NCBI RefSeq assembly: GCF_014204915.1
Contig: NZ_JACHMH010000001.1
Coordinates: 6,597,501-6,661,500, forward strand
Source: Crossiella cryophila
GTDB lineage: Bacteria > Actinomycetota > Actinomycetes > Mycobacteriales > Pseudonocardiaceae
Direction of reading: 5' to 3'
DNA length: 64,000 bases
The translations under genes were made by a program, and so were the position numbers. A model generated the notes under the pieces. The model was not told where the DNA came from. It worked only from the letters and a program-made list of their open reading frames with translations, and did no database searches. Positions 23,525-56,845 of the stretch are shown here, piece after piece (positions within the stretch are counted from its first letter, which is position 1; each line of letters opens with the position of its first letter).

Positions 23525-23655
23525 CGTGTTGGCCGTTGTCGTACACAGTCTTGGCCGAACTGGTACGCCTCTTCGGCCAACACACCGCCCACAACGGCCA
23601 ACACACCGTCAAGTTCGGCCAACACACCGTACGAGAACGGCCAACACGATGTGGG
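23525..23655. repeat. Fold-back element A of the TTGGCCGAAC repeat family
   Basis: Two forward 22-nt-type units (GTTGGCCGTTGTCGTAC, CTTGGCCGAACTGGTAC) are followed by four reverse units containing CGGCCAACAC. The left arm (23525-23566) and right arm (to 23648) are near-perfect reverse complements of about 40 nt, so the element can fold back. It is about 92% identical to the element at 40029-40158. It ends 6 nt from the PucR gene stop codon. Confidence 0.85.
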
Positions 23656-23661
23656 GGGTGC

Positions 23662-25311
23662 TTAGCCGCGCCACAGCCGGAGTTGCAGCATCGCGGCGAA
23701 GCGGGCTCCCGGGTCGGTGAGGTCGATCTCGCCTACCTCGGCCAGCCGGCGCAGCCGGTAGCGGAAGGTGTTGGGGTGCACGAACACCGCGGCGGAGGCG
23801 GCCACCACATCGCCGAAGGCGTCCAGCCAGGCGTTGAGGGTTTCCACCAGTGCGCTGTTGTGCTTGCGGTCGTAGGCGAGCAGCCGGGCGACCGGGCCGG
23901 TGAGGGTGTCGCCGCGTTCGGCGATCAGGTCGGCGAGTTCGAGCAGCAGGCCCTCGCTGTGCACCTCGCCCACCCGCGCCACCGGGTTCCGGCCGCGCCC
24001 GGCCCGCAGCACCCGCAGCACCAGGTCGGCGCCCGCCCTGGACCGGGACAGCGCCATGCCGTCCACCGCGACCGGGCCGATGCCGACCAGGATGGGCAGC
24101 CGGTCGCCGAGCCTGCCGCGGAAGTCGGTGGCGATGCGGTGCACCCGCTCCTCGGCGGCCGGATCCTGCTGCGGCACCGGCAGGATCGCGTAGGCCACAT
24201 CGCCGAGCAGTGCGGCGGCGGCCCGTGGGTGCACGGCGCTGAGGTGCATGGCGAGGGCGTCGGCGATCTGCTGGCGTTCGGTGACCAGCTGGGCGTGCTG
24301 GGCCGGGTCCTCGCCGTGCGAGTCGGCCAGCGCGAGGGCGAGCACCACCGCGGACTGCTCGGTCAGGCCCAGTCTGCGGACCGCCTCGGCCGCGCCGGGT
24401 CCGCCTTCCATCGCGGTGCTGACCAGGTCGGCACGCAGCCTGCGCTGCACGTCGGCGCCCGCGCGCGACCGCAGCAGGTGCAGCGCGACCAGTTTGGCCG
24501 CGTCGCACAGGGTTCGCGCCCGGTCCTCGTCGAAGGGCTCGCGGACCGCGGCCCAGATGGAGCCGAGGATCTCATCGCCGGCGCGCACGGCCACCGCCAT
24601 CCGGGGCAGGGGCAGCGCGCCGGGTTCCTCGCTGGGCATGGCGTCCACGAAGACCGGGCGGTCACTGCGGTAGAGCTGCTGGAACACGCCGCGCTCGGCC
24701 AGGATCTGGGCGAACCGGGCCGGCACCTGCCTGCCCAGGATGGTCTCCACCCGGGACGGGTCGGCCTGCTCCTGCCGCCCGGAGAAGGCCAGCACCCTGG
24801 AGCCGCGGTCCTCGATCGTCACCGGCGCGTCCAGCAGCGCCGCGATCGCGTTGGCCAGCGCGAACAGGTCCCCGGACGGCAGGCCGCCGAGGGTTTCCGG
24901 ACCGGCCTCGCCCACCTCGCCCTCGGCGATCAGCGAGCGCAGCATGGCGGCCAGCTGGGTCCAGGAGGCGCCGCGGGCCAGGCCGAGCAGCACCACCCCG
25001 GACCGGCGCACGGCCGCGGCGATGTCCGCGTCCACCGCCACCGGCCCGCGTACCACCAGCGCGGCCGCGTCGTGCCCGCCCAGCGCGTCCAGCCGGGCGA
25101 CGATCTCGGCCGGGGTGTGCAGGCCGACGCCGAGCACCAGCGCCTGCCGCGGCAACTCCTGGTCGTCCAGTGGATCGTGGATCACCACCCCGCCCAGCCG
25201 CCGGGCCGGGCCGGGATCGCCGCAGACCAGGTCGACCAGGGTGCTGCCGAGGTCGTGCAGAACGCGGCCGAGTCCGGCCCTGGGGCTGCCCATCACCGCA
25301 TTGTCCGCCAT
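23662..25311 (-). CDS. PucR-family transcriptional regulator
   Basis: This protein has 549 residues from the ATG at 25311. An ATG at 25293 is an alternative, and neither has a strong Shine-Dalgarno. The N-terminal ~130 residues match the purine-catabolism (PucR) domain style with repeated short beta/alpha units (VVIHDPLDDQ, ALVVRGPVAVD). A GAF/GGDEF-like central region follows. The C-terminus has the PucR helix-turn-helix (VHPNTFRYRLRRLAEV, ~515-530). PucR proteins usually activate nearby catabolic operons. This one is 4 nt downstream of the epimerase gene in a peptide-degradation operon, so it probably controls that operon. Confidence 0.88.
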   Translation of the reverse strand: MADNAVMGSPRAGLGRVLHDLGSTLVDLVCGDPGPARRLGGVVIHDPLDDQELPRQALVLGVGLHTPAEIVARLDALGGHDAAALVVRGPVAVDADIAAAVRRSGVVLLGLARGASWTQLAAMLRSLIAEGEVGEAGPETLGGLPSGDLFALANAIAALLDAPVTIEDRGSRVLAFSGRQEQADPSRVETILGRQVPARFAQILAERGVFQQLYRSDRPVFVDAMPSEEPGALPLPRMAVAVRAGDEILGSIWAAVREPFDEDRARTLCDAAKLVALHLLRSRAGADVQRRLRADLVSTAMEGGPGAAEAVRRLGLTEQSAVVLALALADSHGEDPAQHAQLVTERQQIADALAMHLSAVHPRAAAALLGDVAYAILPVPQQDPAAEERVHRIATDFRGRLGDRLPILVGIGPVAVDGMALSRSRAGADLVLRVLRAGRGRNPVARVGEVHSEGLLLELADLIAERGDTLTGPVARLLAYDRKHNSALVETLNAWLDAFGDVVAASAAVFVHPNTFRYRLRRLAEVGEIDLTDPGARFAAMLQLRLWRG

Positions 25312-40028: not shown

Positions 40029-40158
40029 CGTGTTGGCCGTTCTCGTACCCAGTCTTGGCCGAACTGGTACACCCCCCGGCCAACACACCGACCACAACGG
40101 CCAACACACCGTCCAGTTCGGCCAACACACCGTACGAGAACGGCCAACACGGTGTGGG
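40029..40158. repeat. Fold-back element B of the TTGGCCGAAC repeat family
   Basis: The structure matches element A: two forward units and four reverse units. Arms at 40029-40070 and 40111-40151 are near reverse complements. It occupies most of the 227-bp divergent gap between ohr and the SARP gene and ends 20 nt before the SARP GTG. Confidence 0.85.
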
Positions 40159-47120: not shown

Positions 47121-47153
47121 AACGGGGGATCGGCAGCACGCCGGTCCCCCGTT
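47121..47153 (+). terminator. Hairpin terminator after DHA2 exporter
   Basis: AACGGGGG pairs with CCCCCGTT, and an inner CGGC pairs with GCCG. TTTTC overlaps the end of the stem. It lies 16 nt after the exporter stop and may serve the convergent SnoaL-like gene (stop at 47161) as well. Confidence 0.8.
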
Positions 47154-47160
47154 TTCGCTT

Positions 47161-47604
47161 TCACTGCTTGGCTTCGACCGCCGCCACGAGTGCGCCGAGC
47201 TGGCCGCGGATCCGGGCGGTCGAGAAGTGATCGAAGTAGTCCCGGGACTCGACGATCTCCCCGTCACGCACCCGCAGCACGAAGATCGCCGGTTGGCTGA
47301 ACTCCTCGCCGGTGTCGGTAGTGGTTCCCCGGTACTCGAACTCGGCGATGATGACCTCGGGGTCGGCCGTCTCGTGCACGGTGATGTCAGCCGCCCATCG
47401 GCGCGGTCTGGGGCTGGCGTCCACCGGCGTGAAGTGCGCCCGTAGTTCCTCGCGGGTACGCAGTGCGGGGGCGCGCAGCGGATCGAACGGGTGCACCACG
47501 TGGGTGTGTTCCGCGTAGAGGTCCGGCAGCTCTTCCCAGCGGCCGCTCCCCACGCCGTCGACGAGCGCGAGGAAGACCTCGCGCGGGCTCCTGGGTGTGG
47601 TCAT
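47161..47604 (-). CDS. SnoaL-like/NTF2-fold protein
   Basis: This 147-residue protein has an ATG at 47604. The NTF2-like cone fold is suggested by FLALVDGVGSGRWEELPDLYAEHTHVVHPF at the N-terminus. VIIAEFEYRGTT and FVLRVRDGEIVESRDYFDHF follow. Members include polyketide cyclases and small isomerases, and many have no known activity. It is divergent from a TetR gene with two operator palindromes in the gap, so it is the likely regulated target. Confidence 0.88.
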   Translation of the reverse strand: MTTPRSPREVFLALVDGVGSGRWEELPDLYAEHTHVVHPFDPLRAPALRTREELRAHFTPVDASPRPRRWAADITVHETADPEVIIAEFEYRGTTTDTGEEFSQPAIFVLRVRDGEIVESRDYFDHFSTARIRGQLGALVAAVEAKQ

Positions 47605-47624
47605 GAGGCGCCTCCCGTATTATC

Positions 47625-47663
47625 CGGAGTCCCGACTCCGCGAATATATGGAGTCCCCACTCC
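47625..47663. promoter_or_regulatory. Two TetR-type operators in divergent promoter
   Basis: Site 1 is CGGAGTC-CC-GACTCCG (47625-47640, perfect 7-bp arms). Site 2 is GGAGT-CCCC-ACTCC (47650-47663). Their centres are 24 bp apart, so two dimers could bind on related faces. They lie between the SnoaL-like and TetR genes. Confidence 0.75.
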
Positions 47664-47690
47664 GGATGTCAATCAAGGGGAGATGCGGCG

Positions 47691-48278
47691 ATGAGTACGC
47701 CGGACCGGCCTGCCGGGCGAGCCCAGCGCGTGGACGCGCGCACCAACCGCGACCGCATCCTGAACGCCGCCGACGAGGTCTTCGGCCAGGGCGGCGAGAC
47801 CGCCTCGACGGAGGAGGTGGCCCGGCTGGCGGGGGTGGGCATCGGCACGGTGTTCCGTCACTTCCCCACCAAGGCCGGGTTGCTGGAGGCCGTGCTCGTC
47901 CGGCGTTTCGACCGCCTGCGCGAGCGGGCCGAGGCACGCTTCGACGCCGACCCGGGTCCGGCGTTCTTCGACTTCTTCCGCCAGGTCGTGGCCGACGCGG
48001 CGACGAAGATCCTCATCGGCGAGGCCCTGCTCGACGCGGGCGGCACCGGCGGCGGCGCGGCAGCGGCCTCGGACGGGCTGCGCCAGGCGGTCGGCACCCT
48101 GCTGCGGCACGCCCAGCAGGGCGGAGCCGTCCGGGCCGATATGGCACTGCCCGAGGTCTACGCCCTGCTGGTGGGCACCGCCCGAGCCGCCGCGAAGGCC
48201 CGGCTCGACCAGGAGGTGACCGACCGGATGCTCACCATCGTCTTCGACGGCCTCGCACCGCACCGGTCAGTCACCTGA
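47691..48278 (+). CDS. TetR-family transcriptional repressor
   Basis: This 195-residue protein has an ATG at 47691 with AAGGGGAG 7-14 nt upstream. The N-terminal helix-turn-helix is clear: RDRILNAADEVFGQGGETASTEEVARLAGVGIGTVFRHFPTKAGLLEAV, written here as its parts RDRILNAADEVF and VGIGTVFRHFPTKAGLL. The variable helical C-terminus binds an unknown ligand. It probably represses itself and the divergent SnoaL-like gene through the palindromes at 47625-47663. Confidence 0.92.
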   Translation: MSTPDRPAGRAQRVDARTNRDRILNAADEVFGQGGETASTEEVARLAGVGIGTVFRHFPTKAGLLEAVLVRRFDRLRERAEARFDADPGPAFFDFFRQVVADAATKILIGEALLDAGGTGGGAAAASDGLRQAVGTLLRHAQQGGAVRADMALPEVYALLVGTARAAAKARLDQEVTDRMLTIVFDGLAPHRSVT

Positions 48279-48287
48279 TCGTCCCGA

Positions 48288-54037: not shown

Positions 54038-55546
54038 ATGGCCTTCGCGATCACCCAGACCTGCTGCGCTGATGCCTCCTGCATCACGGTCTGCCCCGTC
54101 AACTGCATCCACCCGACCCCCGACGAGCCGGATTTCGGCCGCACCGACCTGCTCTACGTGGATCCCAGCGCCTGCATCGACTGCGGCGCCTGCGCCGACG
54201 CCTGCCCCGTCGACGCGATCTTCCCGGTGGCCGAACTGCCTGCCGACCTCAAGCCCTACGCCCGGATCAACGCCGACTACTACACCGACCGCGCTCCGGC
54301 CGAAACCGCGCCCGCGCCGATGTTCCACGCCTGGAGCCCGCCGGAGTTCAGCCGCACCATCCCCGCGGACTTCGCCCCGCTGGACATCGCGGTCGTCGGC
54401 ACCGGCCCCGCCGGCATGTACACCGTCGCGGACCTGTTGCTGCACACCAACGCCAGGGTCACCCTGATCGACCGCCTCCCGGTCACCGGCGGCCTGATCC
54501 GCTACGGCGTGGCCCCCGACCACCCGTCCACCAAGAAGATCGCCGAAACCTTCGCCCGCTTCCACCAGCACCCCCGCCTGACCCTGCGCCTGGGCGTCCA
54601 GATCGGCCGGGACATCACTCCGGCCGAGCTGTCCGCCCAGCACGACGCGGTGATCTACGCCGTCGGCGCCTCCGCCGCCCGCACCCTGGACATCCCCGGC
54701 GAACACCTGCCAGGCAGCCTGGCCGCCACCACCGTGGTCGCCTGGTACAACGGCCACCCCGACATCCCAGCCACAGCCGTCGACCTCTCCGCCGAACGCG
54801 TGGTCTTGGTAGGCAACGGCAACGTAGCCCTGGACGTGGCCCGAATCCTCACCGCCGACCCGAACACCCTGGCGGACACCACGACCGCCCCCACCGCCCT
54901 GACCCAGTTGACCTCCAGCAAGGTCCGCGAGGTCGTGGTCCTGGCCCGCCGAGGCCCCGCCGACGCGGCCTACACCATGCCCGAACTACTCGCCCTGACC
55001 GAACGAGCCGACATCGACCTGGTCCTGGACGACCAGGACCCCCGCACCACCCACGCGGTCGACGCGAGCGAAGGCAAAGCCGCACTGCTACAAGGAATCA
55101 CCCGCCAAACGGTGGACTGGTCCACCCCACCCGCCCCAGGTCGAAGGCGAATCGTGCTCCGCTTCCACTCGACACCCCTGGAGATCGTCGGCGACACCGA
55201 GGTCCGCGGCCTGCGCGTCACCGGCCCCGACGGGGAGATCGAGATCGCCACCGGCCAGGTGATCCGAGCCGTCGGCTACCGCGGAAACCCGTTGCCGGGC
55301 CTGCCTTTCGACCCCGCCACCGGCACAATCCCGCACGAACGCGGCCGGGTCAGTCCGGGCACCTACGTGGTCGGCTGGATCAAACGCGGCCCCACGGGCG
55401 GAATCGGCGCCAACAAGTCCTGCGCCAGCGAAACAGTCGGCACCCTCCTCACCGACGCCATCGCCACCACCCTCCCACCCCGAACCCCCCGCCCCACCCG
55501 CCTCACCCGCCTGACCTCACTCCTACGCGGCCGCCCCACCACCTAA
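54038..55546 (+). CDS. fprB: Ferredoxin domain fused to ferredoxin-NADP reductase (FprB-like)
   Basis: This 502-residue protein has an ATG at 54038. The N-terminal ~85 residues carry a bacterial-type ferredoxin with two Cys clusters (CADASCITVCPVNCI and CIDCGACADACPV). These fit a 7Fe/8Fe arrangement. The adrenodoxin-reductase-like part follows, with FAD motif VVGTGPAGMYTVADLL (~115), NADP motif VVLVGNGNVALDVARIL (~250) and RAVGYRG near the end. It resembles mycobacterial FprB. The C-terminal ~25 residues are Pro/Arg/Thr-rich. Probably supplies electrons to the upstream diiron oxygenase. Confidence 0.9.
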   Translation: MAFAITQTCCADASCITVCPVNCIHPTPDEPDFGRTDLLYVDPSACIDCGACADACPVDAIFPVAELPADLKPYARINADYYTDRAPAETAPAPMFHAWSPPEFSRTIPADFAPLDIAVVGTGPAGMYTVADLLLHTNARVTLIDRLPVTGGLIRYGVAPDHPSTKKIAETFARFHQHPRLTLRLGVQIGRDITPAELSAQHDAVIYAVGASAARTLDIPGEHLPGSLAATTVVAWYNGHPDIPATAVDLSAERVVLVGNGNVALDVARILTADPNTLADTTTAPTALTQLTSSKVREVVVLARRGPADAAYTMPELLALTERADIDLVLDDQDPRTTHAVDASEGKAALLQGITRQTVDWSTPPAPGRRRIVLRFHSTPLEIVGDTEVRGLRVTGPDGEIEIATGQVIRAVGYRGNPLPGLPFDPATGTIPHERGRVSPGTYVVGWIKRGPTGGIGANKSCASETVGTLLTDAIATTLPPRTPRPTRLTRLTSLLRGRPTT

Positions 55547-55768
55547 CCACCCCACCACCCGTCACGCGGGAGGGCGGGTGCGAGGGAGGTCAGGCGGAGG
55601 GGAAGGGAGAGGGGGAAGGGAGAGGGGAGGACGGGAGGACCATGCTGGGCCGCCCCACCCCCTAACCACCGCACCGCCCGTCGAGCGGGCGGGAAGGGAG
55701 GGAGCAGGAAGGCGGGAAGAAGGCGGGAGGGAGGGCCATACTGCCCCGCCCCGCACCCACCCCCGGCG
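55547..55768. repeat. Purine-biased intergenic region with a direct duplication
   Basis: This is the first part of a 651-bp gene-free gap. A ~43-nt segment spanning the end of the reductase gene (55531-55573, GCCGCCCCACCACCTAACC) recurs with few changes at 55648-55690. Each copy is followed by a G/A-rich tract on the + strand. The copies are about 117 bp apart. No gene is seen. Confidence 0.7.
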
Positions 55769-55944
55769 TGTTGGCCGATCTCGTACGCCATGTTGGCCGA
55801 ACTCGTACGCCATGTTGGCCGAACTCGCACGCCACGTTGGCCGAACTCGCACGCCACGTTGGCCGAACTCGCACGCCACGTTGGCCGAACTCGCACGCCA
55901 CGTTGGCCGAACTCGCACGCCGCATTGGCCGAACTCGCACGCCC
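55769..55944. repeat. Eight-copy tandem array of the 22-nt repeat
   Basis: Eight head-to-tail 22-nt units have core TTGGCCGAACTCGCACGCC. The first units carry GATC or GTAC variants (GATCTCGTACG) and later ones are nearly identical. The period of 22 is not a multiple of 3 and all frames stay open, so the array is not expected to be coding. No spacers are present, so it is not CRISPR. Confidence 0.95.
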
Positions 55945-56016
55945 ACCAGGCAAACCCAACCCGACCGCCGCACCAGCGGGCCGCCAACTCCCCTTCCCCG
56001 CCACCCACCCCCGGCG

Positions 56017-56195
56017 TGTTGGCCGATCTCGTACGCCACGTTGGCCGTTCTCGTACGCCCCGCCGAGCAATCCCACGCCCGGTGTGTTCGCCGAACTCGC
56101 ACATCACGTTGGCACCTGTCGCACGCCCGTCGGGCAATCTCACGCCTGGCGTGTTGGCCGATCTCGTACACCACGTTGGCACTTGTCGCACACCC
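56017..56195. repeat. Higher-order array of the same family, period about 66 nt
   Basis: Two full triplets and a final pair of 22-nt units lie at 56017, 56085 and 56152. Each group is a TGTT(G/C)GCCGA-type unit, then a CGTTGGC-type unit. The first two groups also have a divergent unit (GAGCAATCCCACG, GGGCAATCTCACG). Extra 1-2 nt separate the groups. The array stops 3 nt before the convergent MerR gene stop. Confidence 0.85.
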
Positions 56196-56197
56196 CC

Positions 56198-56815
56198 TCA
56201 CCCCACCCCCCGCCGAGCCCGATAAGCCCGCTGCCGACAAGCCGCCGAGCAATACCGCCGAGGCCGCCCCCGACCCCCCTCCCCCACCACCCGCGCACAA
56301 CTCACACACCGCATTTCGTCACCAACCTCCCCCTTTTCATCACCACCTCCACCCCGAGCCGCCCGAGCCGCCGACACCAGATCCCCCGCCGGCAACCGCC
56401 CCCGAGGCGTCCACGTGACCAGCTCCCGCTCCAGATAAGGACAGTCCGTCATGTCCGCGTCCTCGCACTGCAACAGGTGCTGGAGGTAGGCGCGGGCGGC
56501 GGTCAGCTGGTCGATGCGGTCGGCCAGTACGCCGATCTGCTCGGCGACCGTGCCCTGCCAGTCCTCCCGTCTGGCCTGGCCCGCGGCGACCACCGCGGCC
56601 TTGGACAGCGGCATCAAACCCGTCACGCAACACAGGTAGGCCACGCCGAGGCGACGCAGGTCAGCCTCTCGGTAGCGGCGGCGGCCTGCGTCTCGTGGGG
56701 GTGGGCCGAGCAGGCCGCGGTCCTCCCACCAGCGCAGGGTTGACGGCGGGAGGTCGTACAGGGCGGCGGCTTCGCTGATGGGGACGGCGGGTGGGGTCAC
56801 TGGGTCAGTTGACAT
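56198..56815 (-). CDS. MerR-family regulator with C-terminal zinc-ribbon-like motif
   Basis: This protein has 205 residues from the ATG at 56815. A TTG at 56836 is less likely because the shorter form has the normal MerR N-terminus (VPISEAAALYDLPPSTLRWWEDRGLL). Helix-turn-helix and wing are at ~10-60 (RRYREADLRRL), with a coiled dimer helix at ~85-115. The C-terminus is unusual for MerR: MRCVSCARVVGEGGRGRPRRYC then SAACRQRAYRARR. This C-x2-C and C-x3-C arrangement suggests a small zinc-binding tail. Divergent from the ABC/O-methyltransferase operon, which it probably controls together with the iron box. Confidence 0.85.
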   Translation of the reverse strand: MSTDPVTPPAVPISEAAALYDLPPSTLRWWEDRGLLGPPPRDAGRRRYREADLRRLGVAYLCCVTGLMPLSKAAVVAAGQARREDWQGTVAEQIGVLADRIDQLTAARAYLQHLLQCEDADMTDCPYLERELVTWTPRGRLPAGDLVSAARAARGGGGDEKGEVGDEMRCVSCARVVGEGGRGRPRRYCSAACRQRAYRARRGVG

Positions 56816-56828
56816 CAAGTCGACTTGA
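56809..56828. promoter_or_regulatory. MerR-type operator: palindrome TCAAGTCGACTTGA beside TTGACA
   Basis: A perfect 14-bp palindrome (56815-56828) abuts a -35-like TTGACA (56809-56814) reading toward the ABC genes and covers the regulator start codon. MerR proteins bind such dyads in promoters and often repress themselves. This fits autoregulation plus control of the divergent operon. Confidence 0.6.
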
Positions 56829-56845
56829 AGCGGCAAGGTTTTGCC

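What the first reader, a model, noticed from the sequence alone, without database searches (positions are those of the whole stretch)
55769..55944. Eight-copy 22-nt tandem array of a new-looking dispersed repeat family
Eight consecutive units of TTGGCCGAACTCGCACGCC-type sequence stand head-to-tail with a period of exactly 22 nt. This is two turns of DNA, so each unit would present the same helical face. That suits cooperative protein binding more than coding. The array is between convergent genes. The same core occurs at 23.5 kb and 40.0 kb in fold-back form.
Basis: seen in the sequence. Interest (0 to 1): 0.75.

Follow-up and report, generated by a model that had tools for sequence, protein, structure and literature searches.

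The report
Dispersed repeat arrays at gene ends
A soil bacterium carries hundreds of short repeats in small arrays placed just after its genes, often where two genes end against each other, and each related species spells them differently, which suggests a fast-evolving end-of-gene boundary element whose partner protein is unknown.

Summary
The array is real: eight units, exact 22-nt period, 55770-55943, with fold-back relatives at 23526-23647 and 40030-40150. It belongs to a large family: 765 core matches in this 10.06-Mb genome (genus Crossiella) against 1 in a backwards-read control. Elements lie just past stop codons, favour convergent gene pairs (15 of 40, against 74 of 707 gaps) and avoid divergent ones (2 of 40). 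Neighbouring units are 21 or 22 nt apart (116 of 116 with the 9-nt core). Species differ in unit sequence ("dialects"). All 12 testable element sites of this genome hold an element in the close relative G108, 8 of them wholly or partly in another dialect. Elsewhere elements alternate with plain GC hairpins or with overlapping convergent genes. Other genera of the family carry the GTGTTGGCC core with a 21-nt period. Most elements fold into long hairpins, but the window's array does not, and arm covariation and G-U asymmetry are absent, so the units look more like protein-recognised DNA sites than RNA stems. Best reading: a REP-like, turning-over 3'-end boundary element (terminator or convergent-gene insulator). 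Binding protein and mobilising enzyme are unknown; termination and protein binding are inferred, not shown.

The parts
55768..55943 (+). Eight-unit one-way array, period 22, unit (G)TTGGCCGAACTCGCACGCCAC
56016..56172 (+). Four further units in the same direction, partly degenerate, inside a 67-nt repeat (56004-56195)
23526..23647 (.). Inward fold-back element (++---), 14 nt from the 3' end of the gene 23662-25311 (-)
40030..40150 (.). Inward fold-back element (++---) between divergent genes; one of 2 of 40 such cases
54038..55546 (+). Left convergent neighbour of the array, Fer4 plus Pyr_redox_2 domains
56198..56836 (-). Right convergent neighbour, MerR-type regulator
23662..25311 (-). Gene whose 3' end borders the 23.5-kb element, PucR-type helix-turn-helix
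40179..42098 (+). Gene starting 28 nt after the 40.0-kb element, BTAD-type regulator

Best explanation
The array is one copy of a large, fast-evolving family of intergenic repeats in Crossiella, with relatives in other genera of the same family. Each element is a cluster of 21-22-bp units, usually as two inverted arms and sometimes, as here, in one direction. It sits just past stop codons, above all between convergent genes. Shown: dispersal, ~2-turn spacing, 3'-end placement, species dialects, turnover at shared sites, and alternation with plain hairpins or overlapping genes. Inferred: each unit is one recognition site for an unidentified DNA-binding protein, and the loaded cluster, helped where arms are inverted by a long hairpin, marks a two-sided gene end that stops or separates converging transcription. 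Copies spread and are replaced in the manner of REP elements by an enzyme not identified. The confidence is for this way of working; that it is a dispersed 3'-end repeat family I hold at about 0.95.
For: 765 core matches against 1 in the backwards control. Convergent 15 of 40 elements against 74 of 707 gaps, divergent 2 of 40 against 228 of 707 (Fisher 2.5e-6, 3.5e-5); nearest gene end a 3' end in 31 of 40, median 12.5 nt. Stop codons near elements followed by CCC 21 of 36 against 95 of 1328, TAA 13 of 36 against 62 of 1328. Successive TGTTGGCCG cores within 40 nt: 116 of 116 at 21 or 22 nt. GTGTTGGCC arrays with 21-nt period in three further genera. 12 of 12 G000 sites occupied in G108, 8 wholly or partly in another dialect. 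A plain hairpin in G000 and G055 where G108 has an element; convergent genes overlapping by 17 nt in G000 and G086 but separated by an element in G055 and G108. No arm covariation and no fold excess of the window array, as expected for double-stranded sites.
Against: No binding protein, no binding data and no transcript data. 30 of 42 elements have inverted arms and most tested ones fold strongly, which a pure protein-site model does not require. The genus member G086 has almost none (4 units) although 95.9% identical to G055 in one region, so the elements are dispensable. Two of 40 lie between divergent genes. With the shorter core TTGGCCG, 13 of 167 neighbour distances within 40 nt are not 21 or 22. 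Spacing and placement could be inherited by copying.
Confidence: 0.42

Rival explanations
1. The elements work purely as RNA: long GC-rich hairpins from the inverted arms terminate transcription from both sides, or protect mRNA 3' ends, as unusually large bidirectional terminators without a T-tract.
For: 30 of 42 elements have inverted arms; 14 of 15 stretches tested fold well below mononucleotide shuffles in both dialects (z -3.5 to -15.8); placement after stop codons; interchange with a plain hairpin.
Against: The window array does not fold better than shuffles (z 0.77, 161 of 200 shuffles at least as stable) and 12 of 42 elements are one-way. Transcribed strand more stable in only 12 of 22 one-direction elements (p 0.26). 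Paired arms do not covary (p 0.68 and 0.75). No T-tract terminator-like site at the window array.
Confidence: 0.25
2. A selfish REP- or MITE-like repeat without host function, spread by an unknown transposase and tolerated only behind genes.
For: Copies vary from 4 to 752 units among five congeneric genomes; presence or absence between 96%-identical relatives; two in-frame insertions in G108 coding sequence absent from G000; Palindromic repeats elsewhere also sit behind genes (PMC3733652, passages).
Against: 12 of 12 G000 sites are occupied in G108, often by another dialect, so sites persist while sequence changes (two of the twelve G108 loci were fetched for that element). No transposase linked: Y1_Tnp absent at E 0.001 from G055, G016, G086 and no units in three Y1_Tnp loci scanned. 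Gains look non-random (G055 and G108 at the same junction).
Confidence: 0.25
3. A DNA uptake or recombination signal with species dialects, doubling as gene-end hairpins, as DUS do in Neisseriaceae.
For: Dialects, hundreds of copies and inverted pairs associated with terminators are described for DUS (PMC3630211 and PMC1852404, passages).
Against: Units are clustered 21-22 nt apart; multi-unit elements overlap a predicted gene in 1 of 42 cases, while intragenic DUS are common. I did not look for competence genes or a receptor.
Confidence: 0.05
4. Chance or coding repeats.
For: The unit is open in all six frames.
Against: Counts far above controls; period 22; no Pfam match in five array ORFs.
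Confidence: 0.01

Closest known systems
REP / BIME palindromic repeats (GTAG and CGTC superfamilies)
   Same: Hundreds of short copies, intergenic, near 3' ends and convergent or same-direction genes, sometimes intragenic and in frame
   Different: Those are 20-40-bp palindromes tagged GTAG or CGTC, often with a RAYT; here tandem 21-22-nt units, not palindromic in dialect 1, no such tag in the consensus, no RAYT link
DNA uptake sequences (DUS) of Neisseriaceae
   Same: Species dialects, many copies, inverted pairs at gene ends
   Different: DUS are single 9-12-nt words, also common inside genes; here multi-unit arrays almost only outside predicted genes
Bidirectional intrinsic terminators
   Same: Hairpins between convergent genes just after stop codons
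   Different: Far longer, built of repeated units, no T-tract at the window array, one-way versions exist
Iterons and other direct-repeat protein sites (recalled; BldC direct repeats seen only as a search listing and abstract, PMC5859096)
   Same: Direct repeats, here about two helical turns apart, as in protein-bound arrays
   Different: Many chromosomal sites at gene 3' ends; no match of the window array in the plasmid collection; no protein known

Membership tests
REP (GTAG/CGTC) | Unit is a 20-40-bp palindrome | tested here: not met
   Dialect-1 consensus GTGTTGGCCGTTSTYGTACGSC is not self-complementary; dialect 2 of G108 is closer to a palindrome
REP (GTAG/CGTC) | GTAG or CGTC tag at one end | tested here: not met
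   Consensus shows GTAC, no GTAG or CGTC at an end (definition)
REP (GTAG/CGTC) | Associated RAYT (Y1_Tnp) flanked by the repeat (GTAG class; CGTC class has none) | tested here: not met
   No Y1_Tnp in G055, G016, G086; one with a stop in G000; no units in L142, L143, L144 (L145 not scanned)
REP (GTAG/CGTC) | Intergenic, behind genes, convergent or same-direction | tested here: met
Intrinsic terminator | GC hairpin | tested here: inconclusive
   14 of 15 stretches fold strongly, the window array does not
Intrinsic terminator | T-tract after the hairpin | tested here: not met
   0 terminator-like sites at 55500-56300; only this region scanned
DUS/USS | Single words spread over the genome, also inside genes | tested here: not met
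   1 of 42 multi-unit elements overlaps a predicted gene
DUS/USS | Natural transformation with a sequence-specific receptor | not tested
   No search made
Rfam RNA families | Match to a curated model | tested here: not met
   0 matches at gathering threshold in the whole window

The most novel reading that the evidence does not exclude
A protein-read 'gene-end code': tandem sites about two DNA turns apart, recognised by a lineage protein whose specificity drifts, so that hundreds of boundary sites at fixed gene ends are rewritten in concert into species dialects; the loaded clusters insulate convergent genes and let formerly overlapping convergent genes be separated.
Probability: 0.2. Interest if true: 0.85.

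Novelty: new variant of a known kind. Interest (0 to 1): 0.62.

Why it matters
How convergent genes are kept apart in GC-rich actinobacteria is not well resolved (my general knowledge). Here close relatives offer natural swaps at the same gene pair: overlapping genes, a plain hairpin, and arrays of two dialects. That makes the function of dispersed 3'-end repeats directly testable. It is also a bacterial case in which position, spacing and architecture persist while the sequence of many sites turns over within a few percent of divergence.

Tried and rejected
Coding: rejected (22-nt period, no Pfam match in five array ORFs, open in all six frames so open frames mean nothing). Known RNA: no Rfam match. 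RAYT-driven REP: not supported. Selection for RNA pairing: G-U asymmetry, arm covariation and tandem self-folding gave no support; only one pairing scheme of arms was tested. Plasmid origin: window array has no match in the plasmid collection. Viral contigs: 27 records with a GTGTTGGCC pair, 26 at 21 nt and one at 20, with few other cores in the stretch held; I judge them chance or coding and did not translate them. Literature: no paper describing this repeat in the listings of ten searches; the library holds only open-licence papers. A misreading of mine: I read the wrong flank of four minus-strand loci (L132, L134, L192, L195) and a note repeats it; corrected. My gene caller is home-made and missed at least one real gene, the MerR gene, which I put in by hand for without correcting the background counts; an overlap of about 12 kb between L083 and L164 was left in the background and holds no listed element.

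Full report
Observation. The core with up to 3 mismatches has 14 matches in the window against 0.07 expected. Four more units in the same direction follow at 56016-56172, inside a 67-nt repeat. The 23.5- and 40.0-kb fold-backs are inverted elements (++---).

The family. The window is G000:C1:6597501-6661500 of a single-contig genome of 10,058,141 bases. TTGGCCGNNNTNGYAC matches 765 times there, the pattern read backwards once. Among 297 genomes drawn evenly from the family, TTGGCCGNNNTNGTAC gives 752, 289, 246, 36 and 4 hits in the five genomes of the genus and at most 4 in each of the other 292. A two-unit pattern hit 19 stretches of the species collection, all of Crossiella sp. S99.2; records near the window's own genome may be left out there. 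Two contigs of G108 have the lengths of S99.2 contigs (539,781 and 247,121), so G108 is very probably S99.2 and the genus Crossiella. The species of G000 is not known to me.

Sample and anatomy. At 14 bits it finds 211 units against 7 in reversed sequence. They form 51 clusters; 8 of the 11 single-unit ones lie inside predicted genes and are probably chance. After adding nine adjacent stretches and dropping one overlapping stretch (L103), 1.824 Mb hold 42 elements of two or more units: 17 outward (---+++), 13 inward (+++---), 12 one-way. Centres are nearly constant: 34-35 nt in 12 of 14 plus-to-minus turns, 47-49 nt in 14 of 17 minus-to-plus turns. Successive TGTTGGCCG cores within 40 nt are 22 nt apart 94 times, 21 nt 22 times, otherwise never; with the shorter core TTGGCCG it is 154 of 167, the other 13 scattered between 9 and 39 nt (this count also includes L196-L199). 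Some one-way clusters have an inverted partner within 1 kb; the window array has none.

Position. Of the 42 elements I dropped the one overlapping a predicted gene and the one at a stretch end, and put in the missed MerR gene beside the window array. Of the remaining 40, 15 lie in convergent gaps (74 of 707 gaps of at least 60 nt are convergent) and 2 in divergent gaps (228 of 707); Fisher 2.5e-6 and 3.5e-5. The nearest gene end is a 3' end in 31 of 40, and the median distance to the nearest end is 12.5 nt. G016 (convergent 4 of 8, nearest end 3' in 7 of 8) and G055 (4 of 7; 7 of 7) agree; all but one of those stretches were chosen around listed hits or an orthologue. Stop codons from 10 nt inside to 60 nt before an element are followed by CCC in 21 of 36 cases against 95 of 1328 other genes, and are TAA in 13 of 36 against 62 of 1328. 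Element ends thus tend to read TRACCC...GGGTYA, from stop codon to stop codon.

Dialects. G108 has 501 copies of TTGGSCCAANYSGTACG, G000 one, and G016, G055 and G086 none. G016 uses GTGTTGGCCGRTCCSGTACCTC-like units and G055 units close to those of G000 (read by eye). The two G108 dialects can share one array and one 22-nt register: G108:C1:106837 and 106859 (dialect 1), then 106881, 106903, 106925 (dialect 2). Outside the genus, a GTGTTGGCC pair occurs in 14 of 292 genomes; three genera have repeated copies, up to 135 pairs in one genome (G269), and nearly all listed pairs are 21 nt apart, against 22 in most Crossiella pairs. Five short stretches from four genomes of one genus show arrays, inverted or one-way, with 21 of 22 neighbour distances at 21 nt.

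Turnover at shared sites. G000 and G108 are collinear at mostly 87-97% identity over two regions. In the first, all 4 G000 elements in aligned sequence have a G108 element in the same gap (61075 mixed; 84226, 98576, 175058 dialect 2); a fifth G000 element (A 33736) lies outside the alignment and is not counted. In the second it is 4 of 4 (39116 dialect 2 or nearly, 43696 and 72456 mixed, 90088 dialect 1). Four opportunistic pairs are also shared: L109:261 and L106:8764 and L109:4871, all dialect 1 in both, and L076:11227, dialect 2 in G108. The G108 loci for L109:261 and L106:8764 were fetched because of that very element, so an unbiased count is 10 of 10; the total is 12 of 12, 8 of them wholly or partly dialect 2. 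The reverse is not symmetrical: of 14 G108 sites in the two aligned regions 8 have a G000 element and 6 do not: 2 in-frame insertions, 1 plain hairpin, 1 pair of genes 4 nt apart, and 2 with other sequence (95027, 155278). In the second region G055 has an element at 2 of 2 G000 sites within its aligned 58 kb, while G086, 95.9% identical to G055 there, has neither.

What stands there instead. (i) At G108 37759, just downstream of a minus-strand gene, G000 and G055 have an ordinary hairpin (G000 folded: 17-bp outer stem, -46 kcal/mol; G055 by eye) where G108 has an element. (ii) At G055 site L181, G000 and G086 have the two convergent genes overlapping by 17 nt with C-termini PSRRR* and VIDGD*; G055 keeps both C-termini with an element in a 159-nt gap, and G108 has PTRRP* and VIDGD* in a 163-nt gap. 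With G055 near G086 and G000 near G108, this means two gains or two losses at one junction; I cannot tell which. (iii) At the L076 pair, read by eye, G016 has the genes running into each other, G086 a short hairpin, G000 a dialect-1 and G108 a dialect-2 element; G055 has another neighbour. (iv) Beside the window's reductase gene G055 and G086 have a plain GC hairpin, by eye, and a different neighbour. (v) At G055 site L183 the minus gene of G086 runs on towards its convergent partner where G055 has a stop and an element; G000 and G108 have another neighbour there. (vi) Two modules of what I take, from recalled motifs, for a polyketide synthase carry the same in-frame 17-residue insertion in G108 and not in G000; one may be a copy of the other.

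RNA or protein. Of 15 stretches folded, 14 lie well below 40 mononucleotide shuffles (z -3.5 to -15.8) in either dialect; the exception is the window array (z 0.9; z 0.77 against dinucleotide shuffles). But where only one strand should be transcribed, that strand is the more stable in only 12 of 22 elements (p 0.26); variable positions of paired arms match no more often than between elements (13 inward pairs p 0.68, 31 outward pairs p 0.75); and tandem copies of seven real units fold no better than copies of shuffled units. The hairpin therefore looks like a consequence of inverting a conserved unit. Core and spacing kept in other genera, and one-way arrays, fit a protein that reads double-stranded DNA. 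I identified no such protein. Spread by an enzyme is likely, but Y1_Tnp does not fit.

Conclusion. The array is a one-way member of a REP-like family of 3'-end elements with a two-turn unit and species dialects. It works, I think, like a boundary between genes: position and swaps are shown, termination and binding are inferred. It is not a REP in the strict sense, since unit palindrome, end tag and RAYT link were tested and not met. Of the papers cited I saw passages of PMC3733652, PMC3630211 and PMC1852404 and the listing and start of abstract of PMC5859096.

Noticed in passing
L079 8876-10644, L126 17441-18387, L106 8764-9463, L163 11440 region: Some elements form the ends of 0.6-1.8-kb non-coding mosaics with other palindromic families (such as GGGCTTCGCCCG and GAGCGGTTCCCCCATCCCCGTCAGCCT with its complement) in a similar order.
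   Followed up: partly
window 55542-55574 and 55661-55693: A 33-nt stretch from the stop codon of the reductase gene with a short GC hairpin is repeated 119 nt further on (85% identity), between gene and array.
   Followed up: no
G000 chromosome, about 0.40-1.67 Mb: No listed core match between 398,803 and 1,672,096; all 65 hits of a sub-pattern avoid 0.154-1.77 Mb and 8.96-9.72 Mb. The chromosome is unevenly populated; origin not located, GC skew of the samples not decisive.
   Followed up: partly
window 47150-48285: About 1.1 kb present in G000 and absent from G108 between collinear flanks.
   Followed up: no
G108 region 2, 2109 and 6942 (loci L205-L209, reverse complement): Dialect-2 element inserted in frame (net 51 nt, AQLVRPVGPSGRTSLPK) in two modules of a polyketide-synthase-like gene.
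   Followed up: partly
G009, G041 and genus g26 genomes; L220-L224: Same GTGTTGGCC core with a 21-nt period in other genera of the family.
   Followed up: partly
G000:C1:6800204-6800452 (L143): Y1_Tnp-type transposase fragment with a TGA inside, not flanked by units.
   Followed up: no
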